Part shown: in pieces, positions 29,055 through 30,492 of the stretch
Layout: each line of letters begins with the position of its first letter
How positions within the stretch are numbered: position 1 is the stretch's first letter
Source of the DNA: Nitratireductor thuwali
GTDB lineage: Bacteria > Pseudomonadota > Alphaproteobacteria > Rhizobiales > Rhizobiaceae
DNA length: 64,000 bases
Assembly: GCF_036621415.1 (NCBI RefSeq)
Contig: NZ_CP030941.1
Span: 3,904,001 to 3,968,000, forward strand
Direction: 5' to 3'
Program-made: the position numbers and the translations under genes
Notes under the pieces: model-generated
Database searches by the model: none
The model's input: only the letters and a program-made list of their open reading frames with translations
What the model was told of the DNA's origin: nothing

Positions 29055-29642
29055 ATGACGTTCAGATGCGCACGCGCCGTCGCAACCCTGGTTCTGGCCC
29101 TTGCCATTCAGGCGGGGAGGGCCTTGCCGGCCTTGGCCAATGAAGGCGTGCTGCATGTGTGCAGCGGCTACAGTTGCGCCTACAGGACGGCGTTGCCGCT
29201 GAGCCCCGGTTTCAGAAAAAAGCTGGCAGGCATCATGGCCCCCGGCGCGGCCTCCGCACAGGCCGAGCGAAAGGCCCTCGCGCGCGCCGTCGCATATTTC
29301 GAGCGCGCCGCGACCGCCCGCATCGGGGTGAAGGACGGGCCCAAGGGCGAGATCGGCCGCAGCCGCATCTATGGGCAGATGGACTGCATCGACGAGTCGA
29401 GCAACACGGGCGCGCTGCTGCGTTATCTCCAGGAGGAAAAGCTGATGCGCCATCACGAGAGCCGCCCGGCCGCGTCGCGGGGCGCTTTCATCGATGGGCG
29501 CTATCCGCACTCGACGGCGGTGCTGCGCGAAAAGAACGGGGAATTATGGGCGGTCGACAGCTGGTACGAGCCCGCGGGCGGTGCGCCCGACATCATGCCG
29601 CTCGCCGAATGGCGCAAGCGCGGCGTCGGTGGCGCGCGATAG
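29055..29642 (+). CDS. Conserved secreted hypothetical protein
   Basis: This 195-residue protein has a signal peptide ending near LPALA-NEG. The mature part begins VLHVCSGYSCAYR (two cysteines), has an alanine-rich helical stretch, the MDCIDESSNTGALLRYL block with a further cysteine, and a C-terminal VDSWYEPAGGAPDI segment. The invariant-looking CIDES...Y and W-Y pattern suggests an enzyme-like fold, but I do not recognise a named family. It is followed by the minus-strand DUF1127/small-RNA unit, so its transcript probably meets that terminator. Confidence 0.7.
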   Translation: MTFRCARAVATLVLALAIQAGRALPALANEGVLHVCSGYSCAYRTALPLSPGFRKKLAGIMAPGAASAQAERKALARAVAYFERAATARIGVKDGPKGEIGRSRIYGQMDCIDESSNTGALLRYLQEEKLMRHHESRPAASRGAFIDGRYPHSTAVLREKNGELWAVDSWYEPAGGAPDIMPLAEWRKRGVGGAR

Positions 29643-29706
29643 GGCGCGGCCTGGGCAAACGAAACGATTGCAGGGAAGATCGGATCAGGCGGGAGGAAAC
29701 CCGCAA

Positions 29707-29745
29707 AAAAACAACACCCGCCGGGGGAGGAGGTCCGGCGGGTGT
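29707..29745 (-). ncRNA. CcsR/cuckoo-type small RNA hairpin 3 and terminator
   Basis: On the minus strand an 11-bp perfect stem (29714-29724 with 29735-29745) displays ACCTCCTCCC in its loop and is followed by GTTGTTTTTTT. It is the last of three such hairpins downstream of the DUF1127 gene and doubles as the Rho-independent terminator of the unit. The loop is an anti-Shine-Dalgarno sequence. Confidence 0.8.
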
Positions 29746-29755
29746 CGTTTTGATC

Positions 29756-29787
29756 GACCGACGATCGGGAGGAGGTGAAAGTCGGCC
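29756..29787 (-). ncRNA. CcsR/cuckoo-type small RNA hairpin 2
   Basis: On the minus strand a 7-bp stem (29781-29787 with 29756-29762, one G-U pair) carries the loop sequence CACCTCCTCCC. It is the middle member of the three-hairpin array after DUF1127. The loop motif CCUCCUCCC is the defining feature of the CcsR/cuckoo small RNAs of alphaproteobacteria. Confidence 0.75.
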
Positions 29788-29793
29788 GTATTC

Positions 29794-29821
29794 GACAGGA
29801 TTGGGAGGAGGTAACCCTGCC
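29794..29821 (-). ncRNA. CcsR/cuckoo-type small RNA hairpin 1
   Basis: On the minus strand CAGG (29816-29819) pairs with CCTG (29796-29799), presenting TTACCTCCTCCCAAT in the loop. The stem is shorter than in the other two hairpins. It begins about 20 bases after the DUF1127 stop codon and would be released by processing of the 3' UTR. Confidence 0.7.
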
Positions 29822-29839
29822 GAAATCTCGTTGCTTTCG

Positions 29840-29980
29840 TTAGAGCGACTTGCGCGCCACGAAAGGAATGTCGCCGCGGGCGATACCGAGGTCGCTCAGC
29901 TCGCGAGTGGAAAGGCGGCTCAGCTCGGTAACCGTCTGCCGGTAGCGGCGCCAGTTACGGTAATTGCGAATGATGTTCAT
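29840..29980 (-). CDS. Small DUF1127 protein (CcaF1-like)
   Basis: This 46-residue basic protein matches the DUF1127 (YjiS-like) domain: an amphipathic N-terminal helix rich in Arg and Tyr, then the signature LSRLSTRELSDLGIARGDIP, and a basic end. DUF1127 proteins are stress-induced, and some bind RNA; in Rhodobacter sphaeroides the homologue upstream of CcsR1-4 (CcaF1) affects RNA maturation and turnover. Here too the gene is followed directly on the same strand by CCTCCTCCC hairpins, so the mRNA and small RNAs probably come from one transcript. Confidence 0.85.
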   Translation of the reverse strand: MNIIRNYRNWRRYRQTVTELSRLSTRELSDLGIARGDIPFVARKSL

Positions 29981-30407
29981 TGTCTTGCTCACTTCGTGTC
30001 GGAGAATTGTTCGTCCGTCTTGCGATGAACAGATAGGCCCGTTCGCCATGCGGCGGAAGAGATAATGTTGCATGGCAGCAATGCATATTGTGCAATGCAC
30101 CATGATCGCGCCGCAATGCTCCCCCGGTCTCGCCACACATGCTAACGGGAAGCGGAAACCGCCTTTACCTGGGAACTGCGGGTGCCGCCGGAAAACCTTC
30201 GCGGCTGCGACCTTTTGCGATAAGGTGGCATCGCTTGACGACGGCTTCGATGCGGAGGAACGAATGGATGCAGCGCCCTTTGCGCATCCAAAAGGGCAAA
30301 GGGCGCCCAAAGGCGGAAAAAAGCCTGTTTTTCGGGCAATTTTCCTTTGATAGACCAAGGGCAGGTGATATAGAACCCCGCGCTTTCGGGAGCGCTCGGC
30401 TTTCGAA
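29981..30407. other. Long intergenic region with repeats and a strong hairpin
   Basis: No convincing gene is visible in this gap. Three GCAATGC units lie at 30078, 30092 and 30113, upstream of the DUF1127 gene and possibly in its promoter. A perfect 11-bp inverted repeat, GCGCCCTTTGC (30273-30283) with GCAAAGGGCGC (30296-30306), forms a 12-base-loop hairpin without a T-tract, followed by a short AGGC/GCCT hairpin and GTTTTT. The right end holds the tRNA-Leu promoter. Confidence 0.5.
30347..30374 (+). promoter_or_regulatory. Sigma-70-like promoter of tRNA-Leu
   Basis: TTGATA (30347-30352) and TATAGA (30369-30374) are separated by 16 bases, and the tRNA starts 34 bases downstream. This is close to the housekeeping sigma-70 consensus. 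Confidence 0.6.
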
Positions 30408-30492
30408 GCGGGTGTGGTGGAACTGGTAGACACGCCAGATTTAGGTTCTGGTGGCGCAAGCCGTGGGGGTTCAAGTCCCTCCACCCGCACCA
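30408..30492 (+). tRNA. tRNA-Leu (anticodon UAG)
   Basis: This 85-base class II tRNA includes an encoded CCA. The acceptor GCGGGTG pairs with CACCCGC; the anticodon stem CCAGA/TCTGG encloses loop TTTAGGT with anticodon TAG; a variable arm precedes the T arm GGGGG TTCAAGT CCCTC. It reads CUN leucine codons. It lies just upstream of tig. Confidence 0.95.

What the first reader, a model, noticed from the sequence alone, without database searches (positions are those of the whole stretch)
29707..29980. DUF1127 gene followed by three CCUCCUCCC-loop hairpins: a CcsR/cuckoo small-RNA array
Seen directly: a 46-residue DUF1127 gene on the minus strand is followed within 135 bases by three separate stem-loops, each exposing ACCTCCTCCC (complements of GGGAGGAGGT at 29725, 29767, 29803), the last ending in a T run. 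Known: CcsR1-4 of Rhodobacter sphaeroides and the wider cuckoo RNA family have this motif and lie in the 3' UTR of a DUF1127 gene (CcaF1) induced by stress sigma factors. Inference: this unit makes three small RNAs by 3' UTR processing. The loops are anti-Shine-Dalgarno sequences and may pair with many ribosome-binding sites or with other RNAs.
Basis: partly seen in the sequence, partly recalled or inferred. Interest (0 to 1): 0.85.

Follow-up and report, generated by a model that had tools for sequence, protein, structure and literature searches.

The report
DUF1127 gene with embedded ar14 RNA
A tiny bacterial gene carries in its tail a known type of regulatory RNA whose three exposed loops can mask ribosome-binding sites, and comparison with relatives suggests that one switch, probably the redox regulator LsrB/VtlR, makes the small protein and the RNA together.

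Summary
A 46-residue DUF1127 gene (29840-29980, minus strand) is followed about 10 nt later by three hairpins, each exposing ACCUCCUCCC. The RNA is a full-length member of Rfam ar14 (91.7 bits; cut-off 58.8), the NfeR1 family, not CcsR1 (28.0; cut-off 65.3). One RNA of about 121 nt is likelier than three. In 28 linked relatives, 28 of 33 stem pairs show compensatory change while the loops largely hold.

The new part is the promoter. A double LysR-type site (30069-30094), matching published LsrB and VtlR sites, lies upstream of DUF1127. In relatives it is there in 25 of 31 tightly linked loci, and in none of the 31 directly before the RNA; in loci without DUF1127 it is directly before the RNA in 25 of 62. 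A scan with the promoter alone found aSD repeats downstream in 108 of 108 named loci that were long enough. So LsrB/VtlR probably drives one mRNA that yields a small protein and, after cleavage, an anti-Shine-Dalgarno RNA. Stress-sigma control is not supported. Binding, transcription and cleavage are inferred. DUF1127-CcsR linkage was already known.

The parts
30069..30094 (-). double LysR-type activator site TGCACAATATGCATTGCTGCCATGCA, probably LsrB/VtlR; 30081-30094 is TGCA-N6-GCAT, 30069-30083 is 13 of 15 to the VtlR motif
   Evidence: (only match with 0 mismatches in the genome to the degenerate pattern). Binding inferred.
30054..30059 (-). predicted -35 element CTTCCG, 35 nt after the start of the site
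   Evidence: Aligned position conserved in 113 unique promoters.
30031..30036 (-). predicted -10 element CTATCT, 17 nt after the -35
   Evidence: an E. coli-type scan found no promoter here.
30022..30023 (-). predicted transcription start
   Evidence: ar14 begins 71-72 nt after the site in three DUF1127-less named loci; the NfeR1 site lies at -72 to -60.
29840..29980 (-). DUF1127 gene, 46 aa
   Evidence: Pfam PF06568, 60.5 bits; third codon positions vary most in 97 relatives.
29822..29839 (-). junction between stop codon and RNA, with AGAUUUCG as the supposed cleavage site
   Evidence: RNWUU[UC] in 112 of 115 unique junctions, 15.3 expected by shuffling. That it is an RNase E site is recalled and inferred.
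29709..29829 (-). ar14 sRNA, about 121 nt
   Evidence: RF02344, 91.7 bits, model 1-123.
29791..29824 (-). hairpin 1, loop ACCUCCUCCC at 29803-29812
29755..29788 (-). hairpin 2, loop ACCUCCUCCC at 29767-29776
29708..29751 (-). hairpin 3 and intrinsic terminator, loop ACCUCCUCCC at 29725-29734
   Evidence: followed by a U run.

Best explanation
One transcription unit with two products. A LysR-type activator, most likely LsrB/VtlR, binds the double site at 30069-30094 and helps sigma70 polymerase to start near 30023. The RNA encodes the 46-aa DUF1127 protein and ends at hairpin 3. Cleavage at the AU-rich junction after the stop codon, probably by RNase E, frees one RNA of about 121 nt of the ar14/NfeR1 type. 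Its three equal loops bind GGGAGGAGG-like Shine-Dalgarno sequences and block translation, chiefly of transport genes. Shown by computation: RNA family, structure, covariation, conserved linkage, conserved promoter and its change of place. Inferred: LsrB binding, start site, cleavage, targets.
For: ar14 over the cut-off; covariation; DUF1127 stop within -15 to +5 nt of the RNA start in 31 of 110 loci, 28 genomes; activator motif upstream of DUF1127 in 25 of 31 tight loci, before the RNA in 0 of 31, but before the RNA in 25 of 62 loci without DUF1127 (0.35 expected); promoter-only scan: 108 of 119 loci have DUF1127 next, 6 have the array directly and 5 are cut off, and 108 of 108 loci with at least 620 nt have two or more CCTCCTCCC; spacing equal to NfeR1; LsrB-like protein next to trxB in this genome; 13 GGGAGGAGG-N3-11-ATG sites against 2 in the control.
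Against: No expression data. The motif was designed on these data. 6 of 31 tight loci lack it at 2 mismatches, as do 37 of 62 loci without DUF1127. A sigma70-like score before the RNA is near background in linked and unlinked loci alike, so it cannot exclude a weak promoter inside DUF1127. The AUUUCG element also stands at the 5' end of directly transcribed copies. In the order survey 6 of 15 further matches to the site lack DUF1127, CCTCCTCC or both. ntrB, a known NfeR1 target, is not well matched here.
Confidence: 0.75

Rival explanations
1. CcsR-like array: RNase E, helped by the DUF1127 protein, cuts the transcript into two or three separate small RNAs, and heat-shock-type sigma factors drive it as in Rhodobacter.
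For: Same gene order as ccaF1-CcsR1-4, which RNase E processes (PMC10253847 passages); each hairpin folds on its own.
Against: CcsR1 model far below its cut-off; ar14 models all three hairpins as one RNA; only 2 and 3 nt between hairpins; the conserved promoter is a LysR-type site with a CTTttA-N17-CTATcT element.
Confidence: 0.1
2. The sRNA has its own promoter inside the DUF1127 gene, and the two products are regulated apart, as in stand-alone NfeR1.
For: NfeR1 has its own sigma70 promoter. In 3 of 13 loosely linked loci (L034, L037, L044) an activator motif lies between DUF1127 and the RNA.
Against: In the 31 tight loci, the window included, no such motif lies at -130 to -25 of the RNA; the RNA starts 0-15 nt from the stop codon.
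Confidence: 0.12
3. The hairpins are only a stabilising 3' end and terminator of the DUF1127 mRNA, with no regulatory RNA.
For: Hairpin 3 is terminator-like; arrays are duplicated in some relatives.
Against: Loops keep their sequence while stems change, which a terminator does not need; the same RNA exists without DUF1127; mutating the three NfeR1 aSD motifs is reported to disrupt pairing with the ntrB target used in reporter assays (PMC10746234 passages).
Confidence: 0.03

Closest known systems
ar14 sRNA family / NfeR1 of Sinorhizobium meliloti
   Same: Three hairpins with unpaired CCUCCUCCC, full-length Rfam match, LsrB-type site TGCA-N6-GCAT and alpha sigma70-type elements at the same spacing.
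   Different: NfeR1 is transcribed from a promoter directly before it; here the promoter lies before DUF1127 and the RNA sits in the 3' UTR.
ccaF1-CcsR1-4 operon of Rhodobacter sphaeroides ('CIN1 locus' type, cuckoo RNAs)
   Same: A DUF1127 gene followed in one operon by CCUCCUCCC-loop RNA, reported there to be released by RNase E.
   Different: RpoHI/RpoHII promoter, a 71-aa protein and four sRNAs there (PMC10253847 passages); here a LysR-type site, a 46-aa protein and one three-hairpin RNA; the CcsR1 model does not pass.
VtlR/LsrB-activated DUF1127 genes of Brucella and Agrobacterium (BAB1_0914, BAB2_0512, BAB2_0574, atu1667)
   Same: Small DUF1127-type gene with the same kind of activator motif (CAATGCAGCCATGCA; CATTGCTGCCATGCA here).
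   Different: No 3' RNA is mentioned for them in the passages read; their loci could not be examined by name here. A Brucellaceae plasmid relative (Pseudochrobactrum, L278) does have DUF1127 plus ar14.

Membership tests
ar14 (RF02344) | covariance-model score over the curated cut-off | tested here: met
   91.7 against 58.8 bits, model positions 1-123.
ar14 (RF02344) | three hairpins with the aSD motif in the loops, stems variable | tested here: met
   First loop exact CCTCCTCC in 29 of 31 tight loci; three or more exact copies within 130 nt in 20 of 31.
ar14 (RF02344) | promoter directly upstream of the RNA, as in NfeR1 | tested here: not met
   Site lies upstream of DUF1127 instead. This is a trait of NfeR1, not part of the Rfam definition.
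ar14 (RF02344) | one transcript of about 115 nt | not testable with these tools
   Needs a Northern blot or RNA-seq.
CcsR1 (RF02791) | covariance-model score over the curated cut-off | tested here: not met
   28.0 against 65.3 bits.
CcaF1-CcsR / CIN1 locus | short DUF1127 gene directly upstream of aSD-loop RNA | tested here: met
   feature as quoted in PMC10253847; the defining 2015 paper is not held.
CcaF1-CcsR / CIN1 locus | RpoHI/RpoHII promoter | tested here: inconclusive
   Conserved elements are a LysR-type site and CTTttA-N17-CTATcT; no RpoH model was run.
CcaF1-CcsR / CIN1 locus | RNase E processing aided by the DUF1127 protein | not testable with these tools
   Only an RNWUU-type junction is seen.
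LsrB/VtlR regulon | published binding motifs in the promoter | tested here: met
   TGCA-N6-GCAT and 13 of 15 to the VtlR motif within 30069-30094.
LsrB/VtlR regulon | LsrB gene present beside trxB | tested here: met
   296-aa LysR protein beside trxB, 464.5 bits to 9HH1.
LsrB/VtlR regulon | protein binding and dependence of expression | not testable with these tools
   Needs EMSA and a deletion strain.

The most novel reading that the evidence does not exclude
The three-loop anti-SD array is a portable 3' UTR module. One redox activator (LsrB/VtlR) makes a small protein and an anti-SD RNA from one mRNA, so that part of what is credited to VtlR-controlled DUF1127 genes, transport and carbon use above all, may be the work of the RNA; and the same kind of array has been fitted to a phasin gene as well.
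Probability: 0.4. Interest if true: 0.65.

Novelty: new variant of a known kind. Interest (0 to 1): 0.45.

Why it matters
A 2020 paper on Agrobacterium VtlR says that it is unknown whether atu1667, a VtlR-activated small gene orthologous to Brucella DUF1127 genes, encodes a small protein or works as a regulatory RNA (PMC7486931 passages). The unit found here suggests an answer that can be tested: both, from one mRNA. It also joins two lines that the papers I saw treat apart: NfeR1 under LsrB, and DUF1127 genes under VtlR. A caution: a 2025 paper shows that DUF1127 proteins alone, expressed from plasmids, restore pstS control in an Agrobacterium triple mutant (PMC12501420 passages), so the protein has a function of its own.

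Tried and rejected
Rejected or failed: chance origin of the motifs; CcsR membership; an E. coli-type promoter (none found); ntrB as a conserved target in this genome (GGAAGG before the start, GGGGAGGGG only inside the coding part). A sigma70-like score before the RNA did not separate linked from unlinked loci (6.41 and 6.36, shuffled 5.94 and 6.06), though it was raised upstream of DUF1127 (8.12, shuffled 5.55, 52 promoters); the motif test was made after it. A first count of the AUUUCG element used a window set too far upstream and was redone.

Selection: tandem hits were merged when loci were chosen; 110 loci come from 56 of the 61 genomes (counted). G005, G043, G044, G052 and G056 are not represented, and one search did not list all its matches. 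'No DUF1127' means none found by a small HMM in the stretch fetched (700 or 1400 nt upstream, less at contig ends). Alignment A1 holds 28 of the 31 tight loci. Left out were L065 and L085, whose first loops have CTCCTCC in place of CCTCCTCC, and L077, whose DUF1127 protein is the same as that of L061. Row L052 of A1 is misaligned in hairpin 3.

The original papers on the cuckoo family, CcaF1, Brucella VtlR and CcsR are not held and are cited only through papers read in part.

Full report
What is there. On the minus strand lie a 46-aa DUF1127 gene (29840-29980; Pfam 60.5 bits) and, starting about 10 nt after its stop, three hairpins. Each exposes ACCUCCUCCC; the fold of 29707-29831 is -59.9 kcal/mol, z -8.4, with none of 200 shuffles as stable. 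The ten-base motif is found three times in the window, all here (0.06 expected). In the whole genome two CCTCCTCC motifs 20-45 nt apart, the first as CCTCCTCCC, occur only here. The neighbours are a convergent ORF ending at 29642 and a tRNA gene at 30408-30489, both on the other strand.

What family. Rfam calls 29709-29829 ar14 at 91.7 bits over the full model, with a cut-off of 58.8. ar14 is the family of NfeR1: three hairpins, each with the identical CCUCCUCCC unpaired, and stems that differ highly (PMC10746234 passages). ar14 was found in 60 of 61 genomes of the same GTDB family, in 56 of 61 above the cut-off. Of the 119 named loci the nearest is from Nitratireductor luteus, 92.6% identical over 421 bases; the genome's own record may be left out there.

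The structure is real. In an alignment of 28 of the 31 tightly linked relatives, 28 of 33 pairs show changes on both sides; 89.4% of cells pair, against 71.9% in shuffles and 30-45% when the partners are slid; the covariation score is 0.556 against 0.244, and none of 500 shuffles reaches it. CCTCCTCCC of loop 1 is the same in all 28 rows; over all 31 loci the first loop has CCTCCTCC in 29 (the other two have CTCCTCC), and 20 have three exact copies within 130 nt.

Linkage. Of 110 family loci (56 genomes), 31 in 28 genomes have a DUF1127 stop within -15 to +5 nt of the RNA start, 13 have a DUF1127 further off, 62 have none in reach and 4 are otherwise arranged. [quoted passage not shown]

The promoter. 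Upstream of DUF1127 lies TGCACAATATGCATTGCTGCCATGCA (30069-30094). It contains TGCA-N6-GCAT, the LsrB site of NfeR1 at -72 to -60, backed there by EMSA (PMC10746234 section 5), and a 13-of-15 match to the VtlR motif quoted in PMC12595884 (passages). A degenerate form is matched without mismatch once in the 4.75-Mb genome; the next matches have 2 mismatches. In relatives, 30 of 44 linked loci have TGCA-N6-GCA[AT] within 170 nt upstream of DUF1127 (0.31 expected by shuffling; 3 of 44 in a control window downstream). With a second motif, designed on these data, 25 of 31 tight and 10 of 13 loose loci have it upstream of DUF1127. Before the RNA (-130 to -25) it is in 0 of 31 tight and 3 of 13 loose loci (L034, L037, L044), and at -90 to -25 in 25 of 62 loci without DUF1127 (0.35 expected), in 19 of those 25 at nearly the same distance. 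So in tight units the promoter sits before the gene, and where the gene is gone it can sit before the RNA.

An independent test. 108 have DUF1127 next; of the other 11, 5 are cut off by the locus end and 6 have the aSD array directly after the site. All 108 loci that hold at least 620 nt after the site have two or more CCTCCTCCC there. In three of the six direct cases, the ones checked with Rfam (L127, L165, L185), ar14 begins 71-72 nt after the start of the site, the NfeR1 spacing. This places the window's start near 30023, just after CTTCCG-N17-CTATCT. Over 113 unique promoters the positions outside the search pattern give CTTttA-N17-CTATcT at the same offsets. A generic E. coli-type scan does not see this promoter.

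Limits of that rule. In 297 genomes of the order, 16 hold a looser form of the pattern. Besides the window, 9 of 15 have DUF1127 and aSD repeats (six of them in one other family), 3 have DUF1127 without CCTCCTCC and 3 have neither.

The activator. The genome has a 296-aa LysR protein beside trxB. Its best solved relative is 9HH1, 464.5 bits over residues 1-296, named in PMC11975290 as LsrB of Agrobacterium, a redox-responsive regulator in operon with trxB in Rhizobiales (passages). Its binding to the window's site is inferred.

How the RNA is made. The stop-to-TTTCG distance varies from 0 to 21 nt, while TTTCG-to-loop is 14-16 nt in 107 of the 110 units with TTTCG. RNWUU[UC], which I recall as an RNase E-like site, is in 112 of 115 unique junctions against 15.3 expected by shuffling. 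I infer cleavage there. The same element stands at the start of directly transcribed copies, so it is no proof. One product of about 121 nt is likeliest: NfeR1 is a single 115-nt RNA (PMC8844928 passages), and only 2 and 3 nt separate the hairpins.

What it does. The loops match GGGAGGAGG. Such a 9-mer 3-11 nt before an ATG occurs 13 times in the genome against 2 for the reversed pattern; 7 of 13 lead ORFs of at least 80 aa. Pfam names six of these seven: a CoA-ligase subunit, TRAP DctQM, an oligopeptide ABC ATPase, a MalK-like ABC ATPase, DUF4212 and GutM; three are plain transport proteins. The two validated NfeR1 targets named in PMC8844928 encode periplasmic binding proteins. DUF1127 itself rarely has such a site: 19 of 116 unique leaders have GAGG, GGAG or AGGA (no genome control was run), so the mRNA may escape its own RNA. 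ntrB, a published NfeR1 target, is not well matched here. The protein is under coding constraint (diversity 0.18, 0.12 and 0.34 at codon positions 1-3 in 97 genes). DUF1127 proteins are reported to bind RNA (CcaF1) or the sensor kinase PhoR (PMC12501420 passages); which applies here is open.

Novelty. The RNA is a new member of ar14. The combination of DUF1127, ar14 in its 3' UTR and an LsrB/VtlR-type promoter upstream of both did not appear in what I saw of the papers found: single sections of two (PMC10746234, PMC5596092), passages of nine, and only listings of the rest. The 2015 cuckoo paper, the likeliest place, was not available. I call it a new variant of a known kind, of moderate interest, mainly because it makes the open question about atu1667 (PMC7486931 passages) testable.

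Noticed in passing
L069, L076, L087, L104, L110, L112 (unnamed relatives); own genome L002:1501-1595: A second gene with an aSD hairpin array in its 3' UTR: a phasin gene (Pfam Phasin_2 in 6 of 6 tested) whose stop lies 14-29 nt before a three-loop array in five of these relatives and 12 nt before it in L087. Comparing the lists, at least 10 of 61 genomes have ar14-class RNA just after a phasin gene; in the own genome it is a two-hairpin form below the cut-off (36 bits), 55 nt after the stop. A paper search for phasin with these RNAs showed no such link in its listing.
   Followed up: partly
L063, L072; Mesorhizobium loci such as L130, L131, L155: Expanded arrays: three ar14 copies after one DUF1127 (L063), about four in L072, and two DUF1127 genes followed by two or more ar14 copies.
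   Followed up: no
L289, L291, L292: The same activator site and a DUF1127 gene, but no CCTCCTCC downstream; L289 and L291 show other inverted repeats, L292 C-rich stretches. Possibly other loop types on the same unit.
   Followed up: no
L277, L280 (Agrobacterium vitis and Rhizobium leguminosarum plasmids): DUF1127 followed about 200 nt later by aSD motifs, with a box-like stretch of their own in between: an intermediate arrangement.
   Followed up: no
window 29689-29704: Just beyond the terminator U run lies a further small inverted repeat, GCGGGUUUCCUCCCGC on the minus strand, with CCUCC partly in its loop.
   Followed up: no
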